Source: Streptomyces sp. RKAG293 (GTDB lineage Bacteria; Actinomycetota; Actinomycetes; Streptomycetales; Streptomycetaceae). From it: a stretch of DNA of 64,000 bases. Position 1 is the first letter of the stretch. Each line of letters starts with the position of its first letter. Where the stretch lies: NCBI RefSeq assembly GCF_023701745.1, contig NZ_JAJOZB010000001.1, positions 992,001-1,056,000 of the forward strand, read 5' to 3'. The notes under the pieces are model-generated. The model saw only the letters and a list, made by a program, of their open reading frames with translations. It was not told the DNA's origin and searched no databases. A program made the translations under genes and the position numbers. Below, piece by piece: positions 1 through 14,145 of the stretch.

Positions 1-1
1 G

Positions 2-511
2 TACGAGGCGCTGGGCCCCGTCACCGACGTACTGCTCACCCACCGCGACCACGCGGCCCACGGCCGGCGGTACGCCGACCGGTTCGGCGCCCGGCTGTGG
101 ATCCATGAGGGCGACCTCGACGCCTCCCCGGACGCCGATCACGTCATCCGGGGCACGGACCCCGTCGAGATCGCCGAAGGGGTGACCGCGTATCCGCTGC
201 CCGGTCACACCCTGGGGAGCGTGCTGTACCTGGCGGACGAGCGGTACTGCTTCAGCGGCGACAGCTTCTACTGGTCCCGCACCACGGCGGATCTCGAAGT
301 CGCCGAGAGCGTCACCTGGTACTCCATCGAGGCGCTGGCCGCCTCACTGGCCCGCACCGCCGGCCGGCTGCGCTTCGAATGGGTCCTGCCGGGACACGGA
401 GACCGCAAACAGCTCCCCGCCGAGGAGATGGCCCGGCGGCTGCGCGATCTGACCACCCGTACCCAGGCCCTGCGGCCCCGGCCCGTCGACTTCTCCGTCT
501 TCCGCTGGTGA
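2..511 (+). CDS. MBL-fold metallo-hydrolase, C-terminal part
   Basis: The reading frame is open from the window edge, so the N-terminus is missing. It carries a zinc-binding THRDHAAH element near the left edge (the HxHxDH motif with the first His replaced by Arg or shifted), then LPGHTLGS, a FSGDSFY segment and a late PGHGD. These correspond to the successive His/Asp ligands of the metallo-beta-lactamase fold. Such proteins hydrolyse thioesters, lactones or phosphoesters; the substrate cannot be told from this fragment. It ends in TGA at 509-511. It lies on the opposite strand to the lasso locus and shows no sign of belonging to it. Confidence 0.8.
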   Translation, partial: YEALGPVTDVLLTHRDHAAHGRRYADRFGARLWIHEGDLDASPDADHVIRGTDPVEIAEGVTAYPLPGHTLGSVLYLADERYCFSGDSFYWSRTTADLEVAESVTWYSIEALAASLARTAGRLRFEWVLPGHGDRKQLPAEEMARRLRDLTTRTQALRPRPVDFSVFRW

Positions 512-1151: not shown

Positions 1152-1865
1152 TCAAAGGGAAAGGACGCGCCGGAAAAGAGCTCTCTCGGAATCGGAGGGG
1201 TGCGTGACGGGAACTCCATCGACCTCGGCCCAGGCATGGAACCGATAGGGATCGTCGACCGTGCCGATGCACCAATCGAGCCGCCGCCCCAGCAGTGCCA
1301 TCGTCACCACGGCGCTCAGGGAGAGTTCGAGGCAGGCGGCCCGTCCGGGGAATCGGCGTGCCACGGCCTCGGCCGCGATCACCGCCCACAGCGCCTGCTC
1401 CTGCGTGGCGGCCGCACGGCACCATCGCTGCCGGGCCCCGACCAACGCGACGGTGAGCCGGAACGGGAGCCGTAGCAGCAGCAGCGCGATGGCGAACGCC
1501 AGCTGGGGAAGCCCCCGATGGGATCGCGACCGTGGTGCCGTCCGTGCGGCCGGGATCTTCTCGGCCGGCTCCCCCGGGCTCCGCCGCTCCCCCGGCTGCC
1601 CGGACACCACCAGCCCGCGCGCGGCCAACCCGGCGGCCAGCTCTTGCGCGTCCGACCGGACTTGGGTGCGCTGCTCCCGTGGGTAGCGGTGTGCCATGGC
1701 GTCGACGGCGGAATCGAAGTCGCCGGTACGCTGCCACTCCTGCCAGAGCGTGTGCGCGGTGGAGTTCAGGGCGTACCACTGCCCCGAGTGTGCGTTCAGC
1801 AGAACGCTGCCGCCGTGCGGGGCGACGCTGTCATGAATGTGCTCGGGGATGTACAGGTCCGGCAT
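1152..1865 (-). CDS. Lasso peptide maturation protein: PqqD-like RRE fused to B2 leader peptidase
   Basis: A 237-aa protein that joins two lasso functions normally split in actinobacteria. Residues 1 to about 88 match the PqqD-like RiPP recognition element that binds the leader peptide (SGQWYALNSTAHTLW, then helices ending near LAARGLV). Residues about 120-237 match the transglutaminase-like B2 protease that cuts off the leader: the likely nucleophile is Cys178 in AACLELSLSAV and the likely base His210 in FHAWAEVDG. The third catalytic acid is not obvious at the usual place, where THP is seen. A Pro/Arg/Ser-rich linker (about 90-118) joins the halves. The ATG at 1865 follows GAGGAGAG. It is the last gene of the operon, 43 nt after the cyclase. 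Confidence 0.85.
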   Translation of the reverse strand: MPDLYIPEHIHDSVAPHGGSVLLNAHSGQWYALNSTAHTLWQEWQRTGDFDSAVDAMAHRYPREQRTQVRSDAQELAAGLAARGLVVSGQPGERRSPGEPAEKIPAARTAPRSRSHRGLPQLAFAIALLLLRLPFRLTVALVGARQRWCRAAATQEQALWAVIAAEAVARRFPGRAACLELSLSAVVTMALLGRRLDWCIGTVDDPYRFHAWAEVDGVPVTHPSDSERALFRRVLSL

Positions 1866-1908: not shown

Positions 1909-3810
1909 TCAGTCCAGACCGCGGAGCCACAGTTCGGCACTCAGCAGCCGGTTCAGCGCAGCCAGTGGAGCCCGGATCCCCATCAGCACCCGGTCGAGCG
2001 AGCCGACGACGGCCCGGGGGTCGATGATCCCGAGGTCCGCCAGTCGCGAGCCGGTGAGCACTGATCTGATCTCCTGCGCGTGCAGCCGTGCGCCCTGGTA
2101 GTCCTCAGCCGTGTAGTTCCCCTTGCCGCGCCTCGTCAGCACGGGTTCCGGCACCAGACCGGCCAGCGCGGCTCCGAGCAGTGGTTTCACGGTGCGGGGG
2201 TCGGCCCGGCGGTACGACGGCAGTCCCGTACACGCCCTGACCACGTCGTTGTCGAGGAACGGGGCCTGCGGCCACACAGCGAACCCACGTGCTGTTTCCG
2301 ACAGTTGGTGCTGGACGGTCGCCGCGATACGGAGTTCGGTGAGGGCCGTCCGGTCGCCCACGCCGAGGCCCGGTGTCACCGTCCCGGTCCGTGCGCGGCT
2401 TCTGGCCAGCCCGGCCAGCTCGCCTCGCATGGCCCCGGTCAGCCAGCCGGCCTCGGATCCCGGGTCCGGCCACCACGCGATGGTGTCCAGCCACTGCGGG
2501 ATGCTCTCCGACGGCCGTTCCAGGCGGTCGGCCAGCCGTTCCAGCGCTTCGGCCGGGGAAGTTCGTGACAGGCGCAGCGCGCGGGCGGCCACGGCCGTGG
2601 GCGCTTCGCGGCGGGCTCGCGCCACCTCGCGGCAGTGCCGCAGGAAGGTGCGCGGTCCGCCCTGGCGTGCGAGGTCGGCCAGATGGCCGGCGGCCGGTAC
2701 GAGGAGGGCGTCGCCGCCCTCGCCACCGAGGTGGACCGTGCTGCCCCCTGCGGCGATGCCCGCGAGCCGGAGTCGTAGCCGGGCGCCATGCACTGCGGCT
2801 GCCTCCGGCTCGCCGGCTCCGCGCACCTGATCCAGTCCGTGGTACGTGAGGGTCTTTCGGGAGCCGGGAAGGACGGTCAGCTCCAGCCGCCCGTCGAGCC
2901 GGGCGAACCGCTGGGCGTACTCCAGGTCCCCTGAGGGAGCGTCCGGGTGGTGGTAGACGAAGACGGGGAGCGGCGCCGGCGTCCGGTGTGCGGCGAGGAA
3001 GGCGAGGGAGGTGGAGTCCAGACCGCCGCTGAAATCCGCGGTGAGCCGTTCCCCCAGGTCCACGCGTGCGCCGACCGCGGCCGTCAGCGCTGTCCTCAGC
3101 GCTTCGGCGCTGTCCGCGAGCGACGCGTGGCGGTCCGGGATCAGGGGCTCGTACGTCCACGTCTCCGGGTGTCCTGCGGCGTCGATCCGCAGCGCCTGGC
3201 CACCACCGAGCCGGTGTACACCGTCGAGGACGGACCGCTCCCCGAGCAGGGGTCCTGCGCTGGGGCACAGGATCTGGGCCGCCAGGGTGGCGCGGTCGGG
3301 CCGTACGGGAATGCCCGCCGCCGCTGCCGCGACGGCGGGTTGGGAGCCGAAGCCCACCCGCCCGGGTACGGGGCAGTAGTACAGGGGGAATTGGCCGGCC
3401 AGATCGGTGAACGCGAGGAGTTCGTCGTCCCGCGCCACGACGACGAGGTAGCTGCCGGGCCATCGGGTGAGGGCCTCCCAGCGGTCGCTCTCCACCGCCT
3501 GGACGAGTCCCGCCCTGAGCTGTCGGTCGTCGGCGAAACACTGCCCCATCGTGACGAGGCCCGCCCCCTGGCAGCTCACGACCCGTAACTCGCCCGATCG
3601 CCACGGGCCCCTGGACCACAGGGAGGACAGTCCCGGCCAGATCCTGCTCATCCCGTGCGCCGGGAACCCAGCCGGGAAGTCCGCCGGGAAGTGCCTCGGG
3701 TCGTTCGGCGCGGCGTGCGCGTCCGCTGATTCCGGGACGGGGGCGGGTACGGGGAATGTGCCGGCCACGTACGGCGCACACTGTGCGGGCAAACGGGTCA
3801 GCAGGGTCAT
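1909..3810 (-). CDS. Lasso peptide isopeptide-bond-forming cyclase (asparagine synthetase-like)
   Basis: A 633-aa member of the McjC/LarB group. It adenylates the ring Asp side chain of the cut precursor and joins it to the N-terminal amine of the core. The ATP-pyrophosphatase loop SGGLDST is at about 261-267, with the second-half helices LGGEGGDALL and a late RRGKGNYTAEDY typical of these cyclases. The N-terminal half keeps a glutaminase-like fold (PGSYLVVVARDDE, AGQFPLYY) but has no Cys2, so it should not hydrolyse glutamine, as expected for the family. It follows the precursor gene by 42 nt. The leading 50 residues are Pro/Ala-rich and may be disordered. Confidence 0.92.
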   Translation of the reverse strand: MTLLTRLPAQCAPYVAGTFPVPAPVPESADAHAAPNDPRHFPADFPAGFPAHGMSRIWPGLSSLWSRGPWRSGELRVVSCQGAGLVTMGQCFADDRQLRAGLVQAVESDRWEALTRWPGSYLVVVARDDELLAFTDLAGQFPLYYCPVPGRVGFGSQPAVAAAAAGIPVRPDRATLAAQILCPSAGPLLGERSVLDGVHRLGGGQALRIDAAGHPETWTYEPLIPDRHASLADSAEALRTALTAAVGARVDLGERLTADFSGGLDSTSLAFLAAHRTPAPLPVFVYHHPDAPSGDLEYAQRFARLDGRLELTVLPGSRKTLTYHGLDQVRGAGEPEAAAVHGARLRLRLAGIAAGGSTVHLGGEGGDALLVPAAGHLADLARQGGPRTFLRHCREVARARREAPTAVAARALRLSRTSPAEALERLADRLERPSESIPQWLDTIAWWPDPGSEAGWLTGAMRGELAGLARSRARTGTVTPGLGVGDRTALTELRIAATVQHQLSETARGFAVWPQAPFLDNDVVRACTGLPSYRRADPRTVKPLLGAALAGLVPEPVLTRRGKGNYTAEDYQGARLHAQEIRSVLTGSRLADLGIIDPRAVVGSLDRVLMGIRAPLAALNRLLSAELWLRGLD

Positions 3811-3852: not shown

Positions 3853-4050
3853 CTACCAATAATACTGTGAGTTGGCGTCCGCATTGCCGCTGGAGGAACT
3901 CCCCAGGGTCAGTTCCCGGACATGGCCGAGATCGGCGAGGAGCGGGGCCTCGTAGACCGCCGGCCCGTTGTCCTCCGCTGACCTCGGAGAACCCGGTCCG
4001 CACTGGACACAGAGATCATCGGAACACTCGTTCCGCGAAAGGAAAGACAT
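3853..4050 (-). CDS. Lasso peptide precursor, predicted core GSSSSGNADANSQYYW
   Basis: A 65-aa precursor. The leader (1-49) has the recognition pattern YxxPxLxxxG at Tyr33, Pro36, Leu38, Gly42 and the conserved Thr at the penultimate leader position (Thr48), then Leu49. The predicted core is residues 50-65. Gly50 and Asp58 would close a 9-residue ring, and the 7-residue tail ends in two Tyr and a Trp that can act as steric locks. The architecture (16 residues, Gly1-Asp9, C-terminal YYW) is that of RES-701, but the ring consists only of small polar residues. The leader starts with an unusual segment holding three Cys (Cys9, Cys14, Cys17). The start is set by GGAG seven bases upstream. It is first in the operon, before the cyclase and the B fusion. 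Confidence 0.9.
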   Translation of the reverse strand: MSFLSRNECSDDLCVQCGPGSPRSAEDNGPAVYEAPLLADLGHVRELTLGSSSSGNADANSQYYW

Positions 4051-4356: not shown

Positions 4357-5577
4357 TCAGCTCTCCTCGATCTCCTCGTCCGCGAGGATCGAGTCGAGCC
4401 CGAGGACGAGCGCGCCCAGCGCCTCGGCCCGCTGCTTCAGGGAGCTGAGCCGCAGTTCGAAGCCGGTCGACGGGTCCACGGCGCCCGACAGCGCGAACCG
4501 CTCCAGGGCCTCCCTGCAGGGCTTCAGGACCAGGTCCTTGGCCGCGGCGAGCTGCCCGCCGAGCACGATGACGTCCGGGTTGAAGAGGTTGCAGAGTTGC
4601 GCGAGCGCCCTGCCGAGCAGCCGGCCCGCGTCCTGCAGGGCGCGCACGCACACGGCGTCGTTCGCGTGCGCCTTCGCGATGAGCGCCGCGAGAGAGCCGG
4701 GCAGGTCCGCCGAGTTCCCCAACTGCGACTTCCTGACCTGGTCGATGAGGTACTCGGCGCCGATGATGGTCTCCAGGCAACCGCGCCCGCCGCACTTGCA
4801 GATCACCCCGTGCGGATCCATGGTCAGATGGCCGAGCTCGCCGGCGATACCGCTGCGGCCCCGCAGCAGGTTGCCGCCGACGATCAGGCCGGATCCGATC
4901 CCGGTCGACGCCTTCACATAGACGACGGTCTCCAGGTGTTCGCTCCCGCCGTAGGTCTGCTCCGCGAGAGCGCCGAGGTTGGCGTCATTGTCCATCACCA
5001 CGCGGACCCCGAGCGCCCTGGCCAGCTCCTTCGCCGGGTCGCCGCCCTCGCTCCAGGGAGGCAGCACCGGGGCGGCGAACGTCCCGCTCCGGGGATCGAT
5101 CATCCGGGGCACGGCGATGCCCACGGAGATGATGTCGTCGGACGTGCGGCCCGTCTCGGCCACCGCCTGCTCGATCATCCTCTTGACGAGCGGAATCACG
5201 TGCGCGAGGCCGCGGTTGGCCCCGTCGGTGCTCTGCTGCACCTTGACCCGGTCGTACTGCTCGTCGACCCGCCGGGCGATCACGGTGACGTGGTTGAAGC
5301 CCAGGTCGACGCCCACGGCCACATTGGCCGCGCTCTGCAGACAGACCGGGACTCCGCGGCCGCCCTTTCCCTGGGCGGCCGAGTTGCGCTCCATCCGGAC
5401 GATGCCGTCCTTCTCCAGATCGCGCACGGCGGTGGAGACCGTGGCCTGTGACAGGAGCGTGCGACGCACGATACCCGCCTGCGTATCGGGTTTGATCATG
5501 ATGGCGAGGATGATCCGCTTGCGGTTGCTGTCGCGGTGACTCACGGCGGGACGGAGGTGCGCACGTAAGTCAAGCAT
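4357..5577 (-). CDS. ROK-family transcriptional regulator
   Basis: A 406-aa NagC/XylR-type repressor. An N-terminal winged helix (about 20-65, with LLSQATVSTAVRDLEKDG) is followed by the two-lobed ROK sugar-kinase-like domain: VGVDLG near 89, DNDANLGALAE near 196 and TGIGSGLIVGG near 225. The zinc site is GH (249-250) followed by CKCGGRGCLE (260-269). Members bind a sugar or sugar phosphate and repress uptake or antibiotic genes. No sugar gene is adjacent, so the target may be itself, the orphan upstream, or the lasso operon downstream on the same strand. The ATG at 5577 follows a GGGGGA stretch. Confidence 0.9.
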   Translation of the reverse strand: MLDLRAHLRPAVSHRDSNRKRIILAIMIKPDTQAGIVRRTLLSQATVSTAVRDLEKDGIVRMERNSAAQGKGGRGVPVCLQSAANVAVGVDLGFNHVTVIARRVDEQYDRVKVQQSTDGANRGLAHVIPLVKRMIEQAVAETGRTSDDIISVGIAVPRMIDPRSGTFAAPVLPPWSEGGDPAKELARALGVRVVMDNDANLGALAEQTYGGSEHLETVVYVKASTGIGSGLIVGGNLLRGRSGIAGELGHLTMDPHGVICKCGGRGCLETIIGAEYLIDQVRKSQLGNSADLPGSLAALIAKAHANDAVCVRALQDAGRLLGRALAQLCNLFNPDVIVLGGQLAAAKDLVLKPCREALERFALSGAVDPSTGFELRLSSLKQRAEALGALVLGLDSILADEEIEES

Positions 5578-5911
5578 GAAGTCCCCCGACGACCAGCAGT
5601 GATGATTACAACGAAGTTGAAGGCAATAATAATGTCAGGTGTATCTTCAATTCAATTGATTCACCACATCGGATCCAAGTGTTCCAAAATATCGAACATG
5701 TACACCCGGAAGTCGATCAGCATCTTCCGATCTTGGCCGTAAACCGATCCTCCTTACGGGCGTTCCGGCGGTCCTCCAGCGGAACTCGAGGGGTGGCCCG
5801 GCGCTTCCCGAGACGCATTCCAGTGCCGCGCGAGTCACCGGTGACAGACTTGGACGGCCCGCCTCGCGCGGTCATCCCGCGAGTCCCCCGGCCCCACACC
5901 CAAGGATCTCC
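5578..5911. other. Intergenic region between ROK gene and orphan gene
   Basis: A 334-base divergent spacer with several AT-rich runs. It contains the TCAATT half-sites at 5647-5659 listed separately. The rest shows no convincing open frame in either direction and no strong hairpin. Confidence 0.4.
5647..5659. promoter_or_regulatory. Candidate ROK operator with TCAATT half-sites
   Basis: TCAATT (5647-5652) is immediately followed by the perfect palindrome TCAATTGA (5652-5659). It lies about 70 bases upstream of the ROK start and matches the half-site of the palindrome at 4295-4306. An autoregulatory site is the simplest reading. Confidence 0.45.
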
Positions 5912-6423: not shown

Positions 6424-7914
6424 CTACTGCGGCCCCGTATCCCCCTCCAACCCCTCCTGCGCGCCGCCGGCGCCCTCACCGAGCGGCAGGCGCACGGTGA
6501 ACTCGCACCGGCCCGGCAGGCTGCGGGCGGTGACCGTGCCGTCGTGCGCCTCGACCACGGCGGCGACGATGGCCAGGCCCAGGCCCGCGCCGCTGCCCGC
6601 GCCGGGGCGCCGCCGGTCGGCGCGCGCGAAACGTTCGAAGAGCGTCGCGCGCACCGCCTCCGGCACCCCGGGGCCGTTGTCCGCGACTCTCACCTCGACC
6701 GTCCCGTCGCCTGCCGGTACGGTCCGCAGCCGCACCGCGACCTCGGTCCCGTCCGGGGTGTGGATGCGGGCGTTGGCCAGCAGGTTCGCCACCACCTGCT
6801 GCAACCGGTGGGCGTCGCCGGGGACGGTGACGGGCTCCGCCGGCAGATCGAGGACCCATCGGTGACCGGGGCCGGCGGCCCGTGCGTCGTCCACCGCGTC
6901 CAGCACCAGCCGCGTCAGGTCCACCGGTCGGCGCTCCAGCGGCCGGCCGGCGTCCAGCCGGGCGAGCAGCAACAGGTCGTCGACCATCTCGCCCATCCGC
7001 GCGGACTCCGCGGCCACCCGCTCCAGCGACCGCCGTACCTCGGCCGGCACCGGTCCGGGGTGGCGCAGGGCCAGTTCCGCGTGACCGCGCACCGAGGCGA
7101 CGGGGGTACGCAGTTCATGGCTGGCGTCGGCCGCGAACCGGCGCAGCCGTTCCTCGCTCGTGTGCCGCTTGGACAGGGCGTCTCCGACGTGGCCGAGCAT
7201 GAGGTTGAAGGCGGTGGCGACCTGCCCCGCCTCGCTGCGCGGATCCGCGTCCGGGACCCGCAGCGGCAGCGCGACCTCGCCGCTGTCCAGCGGCAGCCGC
7301 GTCACGGCCGTGGCGGTCGCGGCGACCCTGCGCAACGGCCGCAGCGACCAGCGCACCCAGAGCGCTCCGGCCACACCGGTCACCACCAGGGCCCCGCCGA
7401 AGACCGCCGCCTCGACCAGTTCGAGCCGGCGCACGGCCTCCTCGACGCCCCGCAGCGGCAGACCGGTGACGAGTACGTCCTGGTCGTCGCCTGCCACGGC
7501 CCTGACCCGGTAGCCGTGCAGTGCCGACAGCCCGATGTCGTGGGCCCCGCCGTCGACCGGAACGGCCGCCAGTTCCGCCTTGTCTGCCGCGGTCAGCTCC
7601 ACCGTGGTGTCGGTGCCGGAGCGCACCACCGCGGCGTCGGTGACCACTCCGGCGAGCAGCCGGGCGCCGAAGGTGCCGGGCGACTGGCGGCGGGTGTCCG
7701 CGTGGTTGTCCGCGTCCGGTTCGCCGTGTTCCCCCGCGTGCTCCAGGCTCGCCGGGAACTGGCCGCCCGCGTCGCTGAGCTGCTGGTCGAGGCGCTCGGT
7801 GAGAAAGCCCCGCAGCGCGAGCACCGCGGCGACGCCGACGGCCGCGCAGCTGACCGCGAGCAGCACCACCAGCCCGCAGGTCAGCCGGGCGCGCAGGGTG
7901 TGCGGTCCGATCAC
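6424..7914 (-). CDS. Two-component sensor histidine kinase
   Basis: A 496-aa membrane kinase. One TM helix at about 9-33 and another near 155-180 bracket an extracellular sensor region, followed by a HAMP linker, the dimerisation box with phospho-acceptor His (FAADASHELRTPVASVRGH), the N box (VVANLLANARIHTPDG), and ATP-binding motifs DNGPGVPE and GAGLGLAIV. The GTG start overlaps the stop of the response regulator by GTGA, so the two are translationally coupled. The divergent neighbour is the flavin electron-transfer operon, the likely target of the pair. Confidence 0.93.
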   Translation of the reverse strand: MIGPHTLRARLTCGLVVLLAVSCAAVGVAAVLALRGFLTERLDQQLSDAGGQFPASLEHAGEHGEPDADNHADTRRQSPGTFGARLLAGVVTDAAVVRSGTDTTVELTAADKAELAAVPVDGGAHDIGLSALHGYRVRAVAGDDQDVLVTGLPLRGVEEAVRRLELVEAAVFGGALVVTGVAGALWVRWSLRPLRRVAATATAVTRLPLDSGEVALPLRVPDADPRSEAGQVATAFNLMLGHVGDALSKRHTSEERLRRFAADASHELRTPVASVRGHAELALRHPGPVPAEVRRSLERVAAESARMGEMVDDLLLLARLDAGRPLERRPVDLTRLVLDAVDDARAAGPGHRWVLDLPAEPVTVPGDAHRLQQVVANLLANARIHTPDGTEVAVRLRTVPAGDGTVEVRVADNGPGVPEAVRATLFERFARADRRRPGAGSGAGLGLAIVAAVVEAHDGTVTARSLPGRCEFTVRLPLGEGAGGAQEGLEGDTGPQ

Positions 7915-8657
7915 GGGGTGCCCGGCTTGAGGACGTATCCGGCGCCCCGCACGGTGTGGATCATCGGCGGGTGCCCGACGTCGATCTTCTTGCGCAGATA
8001 GCTGATGTAGAGCTCCACGATGTGGGCCCGGCCGCCGAAGTCGTACGACCAGACGTGGTCCAGGATCTGCGCCTTGCTCAGCACCCGGCGGGGGTTGCGC
8101 AGCAGATACCGCAGCAGCTCGAACTCGGTCGGCGACAGTTCGACGTTCCGCCCGTCCCGGGTCACCTCCCGCGCCTCCTCGTCCATGACCAGGTCGCCGA
8201 CGGTCAGCAGGGCCCCGTCGGGCCGCTGCCGGGTCATGCCCGCGCGGCGCAGCAGCCCGCGCAGCCGGGCCAGTACCTCTTCGAGGCTGAACGGTTTGGT
8301 GACGTAGTCGTCGCCGCCCGCGGTGAGGCCGGCGATCCGGTCCTCGACGGCGTCGCGCGCGGTCAGGAAGAGCACACAGATCCCGGGCTGCCGGTCCCGC
8401 AGTCCGCGCAGCACGGAGAGCCCGTCGAAGTCCGGCAGCATGATGTCGAGGACGACGGCGTCCGGCTGGAAGTCCCGGGCCGCGGTGAGCGCCGAGGCAC
8501 CGTCGGCGGCGGTCCGCACCTGCCAGCCCTCGTAGTGCAGGACTCCGGCGAGGACCTCCAGCAGGTCCGGCTCGTCATCCACGACGAGGACCCGGACCGG
8601 GGTGCCGTCCGGGCGGGTGAGGGAGGGCAGCGGGCGTGCCGCGGGTGGGGTGTCCAT
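7911..8657 (-). CDS. OmpR-family response regulator
   Basis: An N-terminal receiver (VLVVDDEPDLLEVL, phospho-acceptor Asp in VVLDIMLPDFDG, Lys in YVTKPFS) is followed by a winged-helix DNA-binding domain (LSPTEFELLRYLL ... HTVRGAGYVLKPG). The ATG at 8657 is preferred; an upstream TTG in frame adds eight residues. It heads the pair with the kinase at 6424-7914. The 11-bp-spaced direct repeat at 8720-8737, just upstream and between it and the divergent operon, is the expected kind of binding site. Confidence 0.94.
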   Translation of the reverse strand: MDTPPAARPLPSLTRPDGTPVRVLVVDDEPDLLEVLAGVLHYEGWQVRTAADGASALTAARDFQPDAVVLDIMLPDFDGLSVLRGLRDRQPGICVLFLTARDAVEDRIAGLTAGGDDYVTKPFSLEEVLARLRGLLRRAGMTRQRPDGALLTVGDLVMDEEAREVTRDGRNVELSPTEFELLRYLLRNPRRVLSKAQILDHVWSYDFGGRAHIVELYISYLRKKIDVGHPPMIHTVRGAGYVLKPGTP

Positions 8658-8719
8658 GGTCCGTCCAGCATGCCGCCCCAACCTCTGCGTTTCCCATGAG
8701 ACCTGCCCCGGGCCGCCGG

Positions 8720-8737
8720 TTCAGAGCTGATTCAGAG
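8720..8737. promoter_or_regulatory. Direct repeat TTCAGAG-N4-TTCAGAG, probable response-regulator box
   Basis: Two identical 7-bp units begin at 8720 and 8731, an 11-bp pitch that puts them on one face of the helix. OmpR-type regulators bind such head-to-tail repeats as dimers. The site is midway between the divergent response regulator and ferric-reductase-like genes. Confidence 0.55.
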
Positions 8738-8781
8738 GTTGCGGCGGCACAGTGGGCCGTCAGCCGACGAAAGGGGACATC

Positions 8782-10164
8782 GTGGCGACGACCTACGGCC
8801 ACCGGGCAGCCCGGCGGGGCTCCGCGCAGCCCGGGCCGCCCGTGCCGCGCGGCCGCCGGTCACCGGCCGGGCCGGTGCTCGCCCTGGCCGCGTCGGGTGC
8901 CGTCGCGGTGCTGGCGCTGTGGTGGCACGACACCGCCGCCGTCGTCGGGCCCGCGGGGTGGCTGATCGGCGCGGGCCGGATCGCCGGCCTCCTCACCGGT
9001 TACGGCTGCGCCGTCCTGGTCGCCCTCATGGCCAGGGTGCCCGCCCTGGAACGCGGCGTGGGGAGCGACCGGGTGGCCCGCTGGCACGCGATGGCCGGGC
9101 GCTACACCGTCTGTCTGCTGCTGGCGCACATCGTCCTGATCATCTGGGGCTACTCGGTGCAGGCCCGCACGAGCATCGTGCGGGAGACCACGACCGTGGT
9201 GCTGGACTATCCGGAGATGCTCAAGGGAACGGCGGGTGCGCTGATCCTCATCGCCGTCGGCGTTCTCTCCGCGCGTGCCGTACGCCGCCGGGTCAGCTAC
9301 GAGACCTGGTACTACCTGCATGTCCTGACCTATCTCGCGCTCTTCCTCGCCTTCGGCCACCAACTCGCCCTGGGCGCCGATTTCGCCGGGAACGCAGCGG
9401 CCCGGAACGCCTGGTACGCGCTGTACCTCGGGGTCGCGACGCTGGTGGTGTGGTTCCGCGTTCTCGTCCCCGTCCGGTTGAACGTCCGGCACCGGCTGCG
9501 GGTCGCGGCCGTCGTGCGCGAGGCGCCCGGCGTCGTCTCCGTGCTGATCCAGGGGCGCCGGCTGGCCGAACTGCGCGCCGAGCCGGGCCAGTTCCTGCGC
9601 TGGCGGTTCCTCACCGGCGGACTGTGGTGGACCTCCAGCCCGTACTCGCTGTCGGCCGCCCCCCGCCAGGACCGGCTGCGCATCACCGTCAAGGCGGCCG
9701 GCGACCACAGCGCGGCGCTGGCCCTGCTCCGGCCCGGCACCCGGGTCTGGGCGGAGGGCCCGTACGGGGCGCTGACCGCCGCCCGCCGGACCCGTTCCAA
9801 GGTGCTGCTGCTCGCGGGCGGTGTGGGTGTCACCCCGCTGCGCGCCCTGTTCGAAACGCTCCCCGCCCGTCCCGGCGAGCTGACCCTGCTGTACCGGGCC
9901 CGCACACCGGGGGACCTGGCCCTGCGGTCGGAGCTGGAGTCGATAGCCCAGTCCCGCGGAGCCCGGCTGTACTACGCCGTCAACGCGGCGGACTGCACCC
10001 GCGCCGCCATCACGGCCACCGGCCTGCGGACGATACTGCCCGACATCGCACAGCACGACGTGTACCTGTGCGGGCCGGACGGCATGGCGCGGGAATCGTA
10101 CGACGCACTGCGCGCGGCCGGTGTGCCCGCCGGCCGCATCCACCACGAATCCTTCGAGCTGTGA
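8782..10164 (+). CDS. Ferric-reductase-like membrane flavocytochrome/oxidoreductase
   Basis: A protein of about 460 aa with an N-terminal membrane part of some six helices, including histidines suited to haem (RYTVCLLLAHIVLIIWG, YYLHVLTYLALFLAFGHQ). A cytoplasmic FAD/NAD(P)H module follows, with the flavin motif WWTSSPYSLSAAP, the nucleotide glycine loop LLLAGGVGVTPLRALFE, and YLCGPDGM near the end. It should pass electrons from NAD(P)H across the membrane. The GTG at 8782 follows AAAGGGG; an earlier in-frame GTG at 8752 lacks one. It is the first gene of an operon with an FMN-binding protein and ApbE, which suggests electrons go to the covalently flavinylated partner. Confidence 0.88.
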   Translation: MATTYGHRAARRGSAQPGPPVPRGRRSPAGPVLALAASGAVAVLALWWHDTAAVVGPAGWLIGAGRIAGLLTGYGCAVLVALMARVPALERGVGSDRVARWHAMAGRYTVCLLLAHIVLIIWGYSVQARTSIVRETTTVVLDYPEMLKGTAGALILIAVGVLSARAVRRRVSYETWYYLHVLTYLALFLAFGHQLALGADFAGNAAARNAWYALYLGVATLVVWFRVLVPVRLNVRHRLRVAAVVREAPGVVSVLIQGRRLAELRAEPGQFLRWRFLTGGLWWTSSPYSLSAAPRQDRLRITVKAAGDHSAALALLRPGTRVWAEGPYGALTAARRTRSKVLLLAGGVGVTPLRALFETLPARPGELTLLYRARTPGDLALRSELESIAQSRGARLYYAVNAADCTRAAITATGLRTILPDIAQHDVYLCGPDGMARESYDALRAAGVPAGRIHHESFEL

Positions 10165-10169
10165 GCGCC

Positions 10170-10673
10170 ATGAGAACTCATCCCCTGCGCCGCATCGTGC
10201 TGAGCGCGGCGGCGACCGTGACCGGAGTCGTCCTCCTGCTGTCCCTGAAACCGCACGCGCAACAGCAGTCGGTGGCGCAGCAGAACACGAACTCCGGATC
10301 CTCCTCCCCCACTGCGGCAGGGTCCGACCCGTCGGCTTCGGCTGGTTCGGCTGGTTCGGCTGGTTCGGCTGGTTCGGCTGGTTCGGCGTCCGGCGGGGTC
10401 AGGACCGTGGACGGGGACACCATCCAGACGCGGTTCGGACCGGTGCAGGTGCGGATCACCCTGACCGGCGCGAAGATCACCGCGGTCTCCGTGCTCCAGG
10501 TGCCCGACGAGAACGGCCGGGACCAGGAGATCGCTGAATTCTCCATTCCACAACTCACCCAGGAGGCCCTCGACGCCCAGAGCGCGGGCATCGACACCGT
10601 CTCCGGCGCGACGTACACCAGCGAGGGGTACATCCGCTCCCTGCAGAGCGCACTGGACAGGTCCGGTGGCTGA
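10170..10673 (+). CDS. FMN-binding domain protein, covalently flavinylated
   Basis: A 167-aa extracytoplasmic protein: an N-terminal membrane anchor (about 8-26), a low-complexity Gly-Ser-Ala linker (about 55-76) and an FMN-binding domain (about 80-165). The sequence DTVSGAT (142-148) fits the flavinylation motif DxxSGAT, with Thr148 as the probable attachment site for FMN. The next gene, ApbE, overlaps it and is the enzyme that makes this bond. It starts six bases after the oxidoreductase stop. The linker is encoded by a 9-bp tandem repeat. Confidence 0.9.
   Translation: MRTHPLRRIVLSAAATVTGVVLLLSLKPHAQQQSVAQQNTNSGSSSPTAAGSDPSASAGSAGSAGSAGSAGSASGGVRTVDGDTIQTRFGPVQVRITLTGAKITAVSVLQVPDENGRDQEIAEFSIPQLTQEALDAQSAGIDTVSGATYTSEGYIRSLQSALDRSGG
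10344..10388 (+). repeat. 9-bp tandem repeat GGTTCGGCT, five units
   Basis: Four perfect units and a fifth with one change at its last base encode Gly-Ser-Ala repeats in the FMN-binding protein. Such in-frame repeats can gain or lose units by slippage and so vary the length of the tether. Confidence 0.9.
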
Positions 10674-11457
10674 CGCCCCGGAGCGGCTGCGGCACGTGGA
10701 GCACGTGATGGGCACCGTGTTCTCGTTCGACGTCCGTGGTGACAGCGGTCCGCGCACCCGTACCGCGCTGGCCGCGGCCACGGTCTGGCTGCACCACGTG
10801 GACGAGGAGTTCTCGCCCTACCGGCCCGGCAGCCAGCTCAGCCGGCTGGCCCGCGGCGAGCTCGCCCCCGACGACTGCTCGCCGGAGGTACGGGAGGTGC
10901 TGCGGCTGTGTGCGGACGCCGAGCGGCGCAGCGGCGGCTGGTTCAGCGCCCGGTACGCGGGAGGGCTCGATCCGACCGGTCTCGTCAAGGGGTGGGCCGT
11001 GGAGCGGGCGGCGGCGATGCTGCGCTCAGCGGGCGCGCCCGCCGTCTGCGTCAACGGCGGCGGCGATGTGCAGTTGCACGGCGGTCCCTGGCGGGTGGGG
11101 GTGGCGGACCCGCTGCGGCCCGGTGCCGTCGTGACCGTCGTCGAGGCCCGGCACACGCTGGCCGTGGCCACCTCAGGCCCCGCCGAACGCGGTTGCCACA
11201 TCCTGGACCCGCACACCGGCGCACCCCCGGCCGACGCCCTCGCCTCGGTCACGGTGCTCGCCCGCGGCCTGACCGACGCCGACGCCTGGGCCACCGCCGC
11301 CTGCGCGATGGGCGCGGACCGGGCCCGCGGGTGGCTGGAGGAGCTGCCGGGAGCGGAGGCGTTCGCGGTCACTTCCGACGGTGGTACCTGGCAGACCCGC
11401 GGCTTCGCCCGGAGCCGCCTCGGCGAAACGGGAGCCGCTTCGGGGCGGACCGGCTGA
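10666..11457 (+). CDS. apbE: FAD:protein FMN transferase (ApbE)
   Basis: A 263-aa ApbE family enzyme that moves FMN from FAD to a Thr of a target protein, using Mg2+. Family features seen are MGTVFSFDV near the start, DPTGLVKGWAVERA, VNGGGDVQLHG, and DADAWATAACAMG, which holds the metal-binding acidic residues. No signal peptide is visible. The GTG start overlaps the stop of the FMN-binding protein gene by eight bases, so both are made together. Together with the membrane oxidoreductase it forms an actinobacterial flavin-based transmembrane electron-transfer unit. Confidence 0.93.
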   Translation: MADAPERLRHVEHVMGTVFSFDVRGDSGPRTRTALAAATVWLHHVDEEFSPYRPGSQLSRLARGELAPDDCSPEVREVLRLCADAERRSGGWFSARYAGGLDPTGLVKGWAVERAAAMLRSAGAPAVCVNGGGDVQLHGGPWRVGVADPLRPGAVVTVVEARHTLAVATSGPAERGCHILDPHTGAPPADALASVTVLARGLTDADAWATAACAMGADRARGWLEELPGAEAFAVTSDGGTWQTRGFARSRLGETGAASGRTG

Positions 11458-11833: not shown

Positions 11834-12835
11834 TCAGCGACTTGGTGACGCTGCGTCGACAATCAGTTCACGGGGCCGGCCCGTCCCGTCGGACGGGACG
11901 GCCCAGACGTCGGAGCCCCCCTTGCCCCGGGATCTGGCGTACATGACGGTGTGCTCGTCGAACCACGCGGCCTGGTCGTCGACACTCGCCGGCTCGGCGA
12001 GCGGGGTCTCCCGCATCGTCGCCAGGTCGAGCACGTAGAGCCGCCAGGGCCGCGCCGCGTCGGAGGAGACCCGCTTCTTGAACACCACCCGGGTGCCGTC
12101 CGGCGACAGGGAAGGGCACTCGGCGTTCTCACGCAGTGTGTGCGCCTCCCACTTCCCGTAGTCGCCCTGGACGAGGTACGTCTTCCCCTTCGTCGTCACG
12201 GTCGCGTAGAAGCGGTTGTCGTCCGCCGCGAAGGTCACCCCCCAGAAGTTGACGTCGGACGCCCGGTAGCGGCGGCCGTCGATGAACAACGGGATGTCCT
12301 CGATGTTCAGCACCGCGTAGCCGGTCCGGGTGTCGAGGATTCCGGTCCAGGTGGAGAAGCCGCCCCGGTTGTAGGAGTCCCCCTGGACGAACACCGTCCA
12401 GGAGACCATCCGCCCGCTGGGCGAGACCCGGGCGCGGTTGGGGATGCCCGACAGCTTCACCCGGCGGACCTCGCGCAGTTGACGGTCGACGATCAGCGCG
12501 TACGTCCTGGGGACGGCGCCGGTGCTGGTGACGAGGCAGACGCCGGTGCCCGCCGCGCTGTAGAAGCGCTCGCAGCCCAGCCCGCTGACCGTACGGGGAG
12601 CGCCGGCGCCGCCGGCCGGCACGGCCGCGATGTTGCCGTGGCCGGCCCCGGGAGCGGTGTCCCGGAACAGCAGTTGGCCGGGGCGGACGGTGTCGATCGG
12701 CTCGCCGTGGAAGGCGGGGACCGCCTCGCGCCGCGCCGCGTGGACGCTGTAGCCGACCCCGAGCCCGCCCAGCACCAGCAGGGCGACCACCGGTGCGAGC
12801 AGCCGGAAGCGGGCGTGCTGCCGGAAAGCGGTCAT
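11834..12835 (-). CDS. TolB-like beta-propeller protein, membrane-anchored
   Basis: A 333-aa protein with an uncleaved signal or TM helix at about 11-32 (LLAPVVALLVLGGLGVGYSV), then repeated blades of TolB/WD40-like type: RVSPSGRMVSWTVF, CPSLSPDGTRVVFKK, AAWFDEHTVMYARS and DVWAVPSDGTG. It probably binds proteins or ligands at the outer face of the membrane; no enzyme motif is seen. The start ATG overlaps the stop of the MFS gene by ATGA, so it is co-translated with the transporter and may work with it or with the secreted PhoX-type enzyme upstream. Confidence 0.75.
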   Translation of the reverse strand: MTAFRQHARFRLLAPVVALLVLGGLGVGYSVHAARREAVPAFHGEPIDTVRPGQLLFRDTAPGAGHGNIAAVPAGGAGAPRTVSGLGCERFYSAAGTGVCLVTSTGAVPRTYALIVDRQLREVRRVKLSGIPNRARVSPSGRMVSWTVFVQGDSYNRGGFSTWTGILDTRTGYAVLNIEDIPLFIDGRRYRASDVNFWGVTFAADDNRFYATVTTKGKTYLVQGDYGKWEAHTLRENAECPSLSPDGTRVVFKKRVSSDAARPWRLYVLDLATMRETPLAEPASVDDQAAWFDEHTVMYARSRGKGGSDVWAVPSDGTGRPRELIVDAASPSR

Positions 12836-14145
12836 GAGATCGTCTCCTCGTCGTACGACCGGGCGTCGGGTTCGCGGACGCCCTCTGTGTCCGCGCCACC
12901 TGCCGGGAAGCCGAACCTGGCCACCAGGAGGCACACCGCCAGCCCGGCCGCCATCACCGCGAGCCCGGTGCGCGGACCCCATGCCGTCCAGGCCGCGCCG
13001 AGGATGATCGAGGACACCACCCGGGCACCCGCCTGGCCGGTCTGCAGCAGGGCCATCCCGCTGGTCCGCAGCCCGGCGGGCAGCAGCGGGCCGGCCGCGG
13101 CCATCAGCACGCCGTCGGTCGCGGCGTAGAACACCCCGTGCAGCAGGAGCGCCGGGATGAGGACCAACAGTCCGCCGACGGGTCCGAGGAGCATCGCGTA
13201 CGCGCCGAGCAGCGCCACATGGCCGCCCAGGAACATCCGGAACCTGCCGGTACGGTCCGCCATGCGGCCCAGCGGCACGGCGAGCAGGAGGTAGGCGCCG
13301 GTGGTGCCGAGCGGCAGCAGCGGGAAGTACTCCGGGGCGATCCCCAACCGCCTTTGCAGCAGCAGGTAGATGAAGGAGTCGCTGACCGTGACGAGGCCCA
13401 GTGCGGCGGTCAGGACGCAGGTGCGGCGGAACGCGGCCGCGCGCAGCAGTCCGAACGCGGCGCGCAGCGCGGGCTCCCGCCGGTCCGGGGATGGATCCTG
13501 CCGGTCCCGGACCAGCGAGACGAGCAGCACCACACCGAGCGCGGCGACGCAGAAGCTGACGACGAACACCGCGTCGTAGGCGGTGCCGGTCGCGGCGAGG
13601 ACCGCGAAGGCCGCGAGCGGTCCGATGAAGGCGCCGACGGTGTCCATCGCCCGGTGCACGCCGAAGGCGAGTCCGAGGGTCTGCGGTGGCGTACTGAGGG
13701 AGATGAGCGCGTCCCGCGGGGCGGTGCGCAGGCCCTTGCCTGCCCGGTCGGCGGCCACCACCCCGCCGAGGGCGCCCACCGAGGTCCCCGCGGCCAGCAG
13801 GCCGAGTTTGCACACCGCCGACAGCCCGTAGCCGATCCCGGCGACCAGTTTGCGGCGCTGGCGGCGGTCGGCGAGATGGCCGCCGACCAGCCGTACGAGG
13901 ACGGTCGCGCCGGTGTACAGGCTGTCGAACATGCCGAACGCGAGCGGGCTCAGGCCCAGTTGGAGCACCAGGTAGAGCGGGAGTACCGCGCTGACCATCT
14001 CCGAGGAGACATCGGTGACCATGCTGACGGCGCCGAGTGCGACCACGTTGGCGGGGACCGTACGCAGCAGCCCGGCCCGGCGCCCCGGGCGCAGGCCCGG
14101 GGCGCCGTCGGCGGCACTGGTGCTGCTGCTCGCCGAGATGTACAT
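12832..14145 (-). CDS. MFS transporter
   Basis: A 437-aa protein with about 12 hydrophobic segments. The family signature is visible as GGHLADRRQRRKLVAG after TM2 and again as LGRMADRTGRFRMFLG in the second half. It resembles the general exporter group within the superfamily; the substrate is unknown. It begins three bases after the PhoX-like gene ends and overlaps the propeller gene by ATGA, so the three form one operon. Confidence 0.87.
   Translation of the reverse strand: MYISASSSTSAADGAPGLRPGRRAGLLRTVPANVVALGAVSMVTDVSSEMVSAVLPLYLVLQLGLSPLAFGMFDSLYTGATVLVRLVGGHLADRRQRRKLVAGIGYGLSAVCKLGLLAAGTSVGALGGVVAADRAGKGLRTAPRDALISLSTPPQTLGLAFGVHRAMDTVGAFIGPLAAFAVLAATGTAYDAVFVVSFCVAALGVVLLVSLVRDRQDPSPDRREPALRAAFGLLRAAAFRRTCVLTAALGLVTVSDSFIYLLLQRRLGIAPEYFPLLPLGTTGAYLLLAVPLGRMADRTGRFRMFLGGHVALLGAYAMLLGPVGGLLVLIPALLLHGVFYAATDGVLMAAAGPLLPAGLRTSGMALLQTGQAGARVVSSIILGAAWTAWGPRTGLAVMAAGLAVCLLVARFGFPAGGADTEGVREPDARSYDEETIS

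What the first reader, a model, noticed from the sequence alone, without database searches (positions are those of the whole stretch)
3853..4050. New RES-701-like lasso peptide with an all-small-polar ring
The core GSSSSGNADANSQYYW has a predicted Gly1-Asp9 ring and a 7-residue tail ending YYW, the architecture of RES-701, but the ring has four consecutive Ser and no bulky residue. If only the macrolactam forms, the monoisotopic neutral mass computed from the residues is 1674.655 (protonated 1675.662). The leader also carries three Cys in an extra N-terminal segment. I know of no described lasso peptide with this core.
Basis: partly seen in the sequence, partly recalled or inferred. Interest (0 to 1): 0.85.

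Follow-up and report, generated by a model that had tools for sequence, protein, structure and literature searches.

The report
Conserved lasso peptide with sugar-type regulator
The window encodes a predicted lasso peptide (a small knotted peptide) that belongs to a conserved family of four-gene units with a sugar-sensor-type regulator; its ring sequence was already printed as a prediction in 2019.

Summary
In detail: a 65-residue lasso precursor lies at 3853-4050 (-), with cyclase C and a fused B1-B2 protein; core and mass are as stated. 'RES-701-like' holds only for length, ring size and the YYW end: the cyclase is of albusnodin/ikarugamycin type, and B is fused where that of RES-701 is split. 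Novelty is overstated: the identical core occurs in Streptomyces fildesensis INACH3013, and the ring GSSSSGNAD was printed in 2019 (PMC6522549) as an unknown lassopeptide. What I did not find in print is the family: 11 loci in four Streptomycetaceae genera share ROK regulator-A-C-B; no other gene recurs in more than three of seven lineages. The core is the best-conserved part (79% mean identity; cyclase 50%). The ROK gene has a conserved promoter element (9 of 11 loci, weak in two) and a TTA (bldA) codon within 11 codons of its start in 9 of 11, against 0 of 20 other ROK genes of this genome. Twenty other cyclases of the superfamily lack an adjacent ROK gene. Best reading: a class II lasso peptide under local, sugar-type, developmentally timed control. 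Topology, production, ligand and target are untested.

The parts
3853..4050 (-). Precursor gene A (65 aa; leader 3904-4050, predicted core 3856-3903)
   Evidence: NF033521 29.4 bits, cut-off 19; leader motif and core kept in 11 loci
1909..3810 (-). C, macrolactam cyclase (633 aa), SGGLDS loop
   Evidence: NF033561 318 bits, cut-off 300; PF00733 97.3 bits; SGGxDS in 11 of 11 loci
1152..1865 (-). Fused B1-B2 (PqqD domain + transglutaminase-like protease; 237 aa from ATG 1865, a GTG start at 1940 is possible)
   Evidence: PF05402 42.1 bits, PF13471 51.7 bits, NF033537 69.4 bits; GAGGAGAGG before the ATG
4357..5577 (-). ROK-family regulator (406 aa; winged helix, sugar/zinc site kept, phosphate loop changed; TTA as codon 4, 5566-5568)
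   Evidence: PF00480 193 bits, MarR_2 35.4 bits; alignment of 11; TTA
5636..5655 (-). Conserved promoter element of the ROK gene, candidate operator; only exact match of its pattern in the genome
4295..4306 (.). Perfect palindrome TCAATTAATTGA between ROK and A; candidate second site, seen here and in S. fildesensis
   Evidence: not confirmed across the family

Best explanation
A four-gene lasso peptide unit, ROK-A-C-B. Inferred from homology: the PqqD half of B holds the leader (YEAPLLADLGHVRELTL), the protease half cuts before Gly1, and C activates Asp9 and closes the Gly1-Asp9 lactam round the tail, giving a class II lasso of 1674.65 Da with tail ANSQYYW and the last aromatic residues as plug. 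Shown by comparison: the unit is kept in a monophyletic cyclase clade with the ROK gene directly upstream on the same strand. Inferred: the ROK protein is a local, self-controlling, sugar-type regulator acting at the conserved element before its own gene and so governing the lasso genes behind it; the TTA codon makes its synthesis depend on the bldA tRNA and so on development. The nearly fixed core points to one conserved target rather than a diversifying weapon. No exporter lies beside this unit; some relatives have an ABC exporter near theirs.
For: Family and domain hits. ROK, A, C and B in the window and the 9 other pieces compared, and in L056 with only the first half of B in view. ROK beside C in 9 of 9 clade loci and 0 of 20 others within 1.5 kb; with wider flanks 10 of 10 against 1 of 20, a distant ROK (27-30% identity) about 2.9 kb away. 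Clade one side of a branch with 100/99 support (30 rows, G397 not included). B one frame in 9 of 9 other loci with both halves in view. Core 79.2% mean identity, ROK 54.9%, C 49.7% over seven representatives. Element: 35 of 85 columns agree in at least 5 of 7 loci, 8-11 at four shifted positions; one exact match in the own genome. TTA within 11 codons of the ROK start in 9 of 11 loci, as codon 4, 8 or 11; 0 of 81 other ORFs of the loci in their first 15 codons, 0 of 20 other ROK genes of this genome near a start. Sugar-site Asn-Asp, Glu, His and zinc Cys kept in 11 of 11 ROK proteins.
Against: No expression, mass or binding data. A second element before gene A is not established: leave-one-out p 0.003-0.405 over 10 loci. 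Two loci (L049, L050) lack the TTA codon and do not match the element by score (p 0.226, 0.189). The element alignment was anchored by eye on GAAG, the shifted controls were not; ROK starts were chosen by me from the conserved MLDLR/MADIR-type N-terminus. Core conservation is not unique: two sister clades have cores more alike than their cyclases (69.6 against 60.9%, 89.6 against 77.8%). The 11 loci share descent, so they are not independent events.
Confidence: 0.65

Rival explanations
1. An ordinary cryptic class II lasso antibiotic; the ROK gene travels with it by shared descent and does not control it.
For: No binding data; second element before A not established; 306 bp between ROK stop and A start in the window. 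Four relatives have an ABC exporter within about 6 kb, as secreted antibiotics often do.
Against: Between lineages the flanks differ while ROK stays upstream on the same strand; its promoter element and start-proximal TTA codon are kept in most loci.
Confidence: 0.25
2. A true RES-701 relative, acting like RES-701 on its receptor.
For: 16 residues, D9, YYW end; gene order A-C-B as in res.
Against: 5 of 16 identical; fused B and 65-aa precursor; nearest kin have a core family of their own.
Confidence: 0.06
3. The unit makes a different product or none: another cut site, an unthreaded branched ring, or a silent cluster.
For: Topology cannot be read from sequence; the ring lacks bulky residues; S. 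caniferus made no RES-701-3/-4 under the conditions tried (PMC7280977).
Against: Conservation of leader, core and enzymes.
Confidence: 0.1

Closest known systems
Predicted lassopeptide of Streptomyces fildesensis So13.3 (PMC6522549, 2019; passages seen)
   Same: Same ring GSSSSGNAD; the paper notes TTA codons near starts of regulatory and biosynthetic genes, an aldo/keto reductase (one lies near the unit in INACH3013 too) and an 'ArsR family' regulator, perhaps this ROK gene (my guess).
   Different: Reported as one unknown cluster; tail, family, ROK gene and conservation are not in the passages seen. No compound isolated there.
Albusnodin/ikarugamycin-type lasso clusters (NF033561)
   Same: Cyclase above the NF033561 cut-off.
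   Different: Precursor below the albusnodin cut-off (13 against 30 bits); a locus with an albusnodin-like core (L036; likeness recalled) lies far off in the tree.
RES-701-3/-4 (PMC7280977; abstract and two sections read)
   Same: 16-residue core, C-terminal YYW, acidic ring residue, C before B.
   Different: Split B1/B2, 44-aa precursor, resE/F/D, bulky ring and tail (core compared is RES-701-1).
RokB of S. coelicolor (PMC4856308; passages seen)
   Same: Streptomyces ROK regulator that binds its own promoter and a secondary-metabolite promoter, one site an inverted repeat with TTC/GAA halves.
   Different: Not tied to a lasso cluster in the passages seen; different site.

Membership tests
Lasso peptide (class II) | Precursor with lasso leader motif, Gly1 and an acidic residue at 7-9, no Cys in the core | tested here: met
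   NF033521 29.4 bits (cut-off 19); G1, D9
Lasso peptide (class II) | PqqD-type B1, transglutaminase-like B2 and Asn-synthetase-like C together | tested here: met
   SGGxDS in C of 11 of 11 loci; B2 Cys/His motif seen in 4 of 11 with my strict pattern
Lasso peptide (class II) | Threaded topology, one water lost | not testable with these tools
   needs MS/MS or NMR
RES-701 | RES-701 core | tested here: not met
   5 of 16 identical to RES-701-1
RES-701 | Split B1/B2 and 44-aa precursor | tested here: not met
   fused B, 65 aa against PMC7280977
RES-701 | resD (ABC) and resF (APC) transporters nearby | tested here: not met
   no ABC hit in L007 or the first 20 kb of the window; no APC family among the flanking ORFs scanned; the paper says two RES-701 clusters lack both genes
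RES-701 | resE | not tested
   no ResE sequence available
RES-701 | Cyclase of the ResC lineage | not tested
   RES-701 core patterns gave 0 copies in 392 genomes, so no ResC to compare
Albusnodin/ikarugamycin-type cyclase | NF033561 above cut-off | tested here: met
   318 against 300 bits
Albusnodin peptide | NF033525 precursor | tested here: not met
   13 against 30 bits
ROK repressor (NagC/Mlc type) | N-terminal winged helix plus ROK domain with sugar/zinc site | tested here: met
ROK repressor (NagC/Mlc type) | Binds sugar and operator | not testable with these tools
   conserved element only

The most novel reading that the evidence does not exclude
A lasso peptide used as a conserved developmental or nutritional signal in Streptomycetaceae: a ROK sensor, itself timed by bldA, gates a peptide whose core is nearly frozen because it must fit one conserved partner, possibly in the producer or its kin (even the ROK protein itself).
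Probability: 0.2. Interest if true: 0.75.

Novelty: new variant of a known kind. Interest (0 to 1): 0.5.

Why it matters
Lasso clusters are often silent and their triggers unknown. This family brings its own candidate switch (a sugar-type ROK regulator with a conserved promoter element and a bldA codon), so induction becomes testable in 11 genomes. A core kept nearly fixed across four genera suggests a conserved target. A search of the library for 'lasso peptide' with 'ROK family' gave one genome data paper, seen in the listing only; 'lasso peptide' with 'TTA codon' gave six, of which only PMC6522549 was opened.

Tried and rejected
RES-701 kinship: pattern searches in 392 genomes of genus g9 gave no RES-701 core; the first pattern had Ala7 and so would miss RES-701-3, whose Ser7 I recall from no call; the second, wider pattern covers both. 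A wider regulon of the element: none in the own genome; the two further hits have 3 mismatches and are as many as in the reversed-pattern control. A second element before A: not established. Members outside the family: in a draw of 396 genomes from the phylum the only two hits were the window and G079 (20 candidates scored per genome, so weak members may be missed). Own genus: 35 genomes, the family precursor in 2 (window, G007 = S. fildesensis contig); two further weak hits at E 0.006-0.007, of which L011 is another lasso precursor (the L025 type) and L012 was not looked at. Genus g5: 2 of 4 genomes. Plasmids: 16 records with cyclases, best identity 34.2%, none of this clade. Named relatives: the one genome-contig scan gave S. 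fildesensis only. Selection on the core: its 48 bases are identical in S. fildesensis, too few to test. Fused B as a clade mark: one of 20 outsiders also looks fused (L063, weak B1 hit), three look split (L059, L060, L075), 16 could not be placed. The large 2017 lasso survey is not in the library, so its precursor tables were not checked. First statement withdrawn on checking: my ORF filter hid genes (B in several loci, an ABC exporter in L046), so I repeated the neighbour comparison without it; an ABC exporter turned up near 4 of 11 loci. A first TTA control on other ROK genes read the wrong frame in several loci and was replaced.

Full report
What is there. On the minus strand the window carries, in order, a ROK-family regulator (4357-5577), a lasso precursor (3853-4050), a cyclase (1909-3810) and a fused B1-B2 protein (1152-1865 from its ATG). 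The precursor reaches the NCBIfam lasso leader model, the cyclase the albusnodin/ikarugamycin macrolactam cyclase model (318 bits, cut-off 300), and B has a PqqD and a transglutaminase-like domain. No exporter lies in the unit; two ABC exporters of relatives find no match in the 12 kb before the window or its first 20 kb. The nearest transporter seen is an MFS protein at 12832-14145.

Already seen. The identical core is encoded in Streptomyces fildesensis INACH3013 (L013). The 2019 genome paper on S. fildesensis So13.3 (PMC6522549; passages seen) prints the ring GSSSSGNAD as the putative macrolactam of an unknown lassopeptide and notes TTA codons near the starts of its genes. A text search for the full core gave no paper, and one for six core fragments gave only that paper. 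So the ring is in print as a prediction; I found no isolated compound.

A family. A search with the cyclase in 297 family genomes found 39 with a match at 1e-40 (4 candidates scored per genome, so a lower bound). The ten best, window and S. fildesensis included, have cores of one type (the core of L020/L048, with Ala for Thr at -2, was missed by the first pattern and found). A core-end pattern in 392 genomes of genus g9 matched two, one of them new, G397. That makes 11 loci, four genera, seven distinct cores: GSSSSGNADANSQYYW, GSSSSGSADANSQYYW, GSSSSGTADANSHYYW, GSSPNGNADANAQYYW, GSSPSGNADANAQYYW, GSAASGKADANSQFYW, GSAASGRADANSQFYW. Invariant in nine rows are G1, S2, G6, A8, D9, A10, N11, Y15 and W16. 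Over seven representatives the core averages 79.2% identity, the leader motif 63.9%, ROK 54.9%, the cyclase 49.7%, the twenty residues before the leader motif 35.5%. Against S. fildesensis, A has 1 nonsynonymous and 6 synonymous changes, C 69.5 and 77.5.

The unit. ROK, A, C and B are found in the window and in the nine pieces L043-L051, and in L056 with only the first half of B in view. Outside the unit, a comparison of all open frames of 110 codons or more in seven lineages found no gene in more than three. That one is an ABC exporter, in 4 of 11 loci: 89 bp before ROK in L044, 1.8 kb before it in L056, 3.0 kb after B in L046, and 5.8 kb after B on the other strand in L043. Two more genes recur in two lineages each, and one search also shows a 33% match of a ferric-reductase-type gene between the window and L049. 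The window and S. fildesensis, being close kin, share much of their flanks, and L049 and L050 share a gene at 73.5%. ROK lies beside C in 9 of 9 clade loci and in none of 20 other loci of the superfamily within 1.5 kb; with wider flanks one of the 20 (L074) shows a ROK gene at 27-30% identity about 2.9 kb off. The clade has 100/99 support among 30 cyclases. B is one reading frame in the window and in 9 of 9 other loci with both halves in view. The own genome holds 21 ROK genes.

Regulation. The ROK proteins keep the sugar-site Asn-Asp, Glu and His and three zinc Cys in 11 of 11, with a phosphate loop such as DLGFN or HLGFN where the glucokinase 2qm1 has DLGGT. Before the ROK gene lies a conserved block, roughly TCGAAG and then, 22 bases on, TTCAATTYGAAGAT, clear in 9 of 11 loci; 35 of 85 columns agree in at least 5 of 7 representatives, against 8-11 at four shifted positions. 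The alignment was anchored by eye; the shifts were not. Scored leave-one-out with near relatives removed, the element is found before ROK at p 0.003-0.013 in 8 of 10 loci and not in L049 and L050 (L051 not scored). Its pattern has one exact match in the genome. Before gene A a second copy is not established (p 0.003-0.405), though the window and S. fildesensis have the palindrome TCAATTAATTGA there, unique in the own genome as GGTTCAATTAATTGAG. S. coelicolor RokB binds two sites in its own promoter region (PMC4856308, passages).

TTA codons. The ROK gene has TTA as codon 4, 8 or 11 in 9 of 11 loci; L049 and L050 have none. Controls: of 81 other ORFs of these loci 5 have a TTA anywhere, none in the first 15 codons and one in the first 75; these ORFs passed a GC3 filter and start at the first possible codon, which favours a low count. 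Of the 20 other ROK genes of this genome 2 have a TTA in the open frame, both before the first start codon, and none within 14 codons after a start (two frames cut at the 5' end of the piece). PMC6522549 states that 2-3% of Streptomyces genes have TTA and that bldA is the tRNA that reads it efficiently. Placement at three different codons argues for kept translational control.

Reading. I take it as a class II lasso unit with a built-in switch. Shown: gene content, clade, conservation, element, TTA codons. Inferred: cleavage, ring, threading, sugar sensing, direction of control, export and target. The RES-701 comparison rests on passages of two papers and on 5 of 16 matching residues; PMC7280977 writes Asp-8 for the ring residue in its discussion, while the table sequence puts Asp at 9. 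Without a RES-701 cyclase I cannot exclude a distant common origin. Two sister clades with conserved cores of their own warn that a fixed core is common in this superfamily and is not by itself proof of a signal role.

Noticed in passing
L025, L026, L028 and L031, L033, L035 (upstream of C): Two sister clades of the cyclase superfamily have conserved cores of their own, G[ST]xxFDTAD[DE]TQY... and GSGGFNNPD[SH]TMY[FWY]QG; not searched for in print.
   Followed up: partly
L044 4370-6265, L056, L046 3216-5066, L043 94-1794: ABC exporters (ABC_membrane + ABC_tran in L044 and L043) lie near the lasso unit in 4 of 11 loci at four different positions; those of L044, L056 and L046 are 82-97% alike.
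   Followed up: partly
L008 5916-8489 (-), own genome near 4.322 Mb: An 857-aa asparagine-synthase-domain protein with a long Gly/Ser/Tyr-rich stretch, the best other match of the lasso cyclase in this genome.
   Followed up: partly
window 6424-11457: A sensor kinase/response regulator pair beside a ferric-reductase-like protein and an ApbE protein.
   Followed up: partly
window 1-511 and L051 709-2644: A weak Lactamase_B-type gene ends at window 511; in S. fildesensis only its residues 70-195 match, and an aldo/keto reductase lies between it and B.
   Followed up: partly
L048, leader of A: The leader Thr at -2, kept in the other ten loci, is Ala here.
   Followed up: no
L007 2889-3578 (-) and 4664-5746 (+): An alkylmercury-lyase-domain (MerB) protein and a GH19 chitinase with a carbohydrate-binding module lie 7-9 kb before the window's start.
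   Followed up: no
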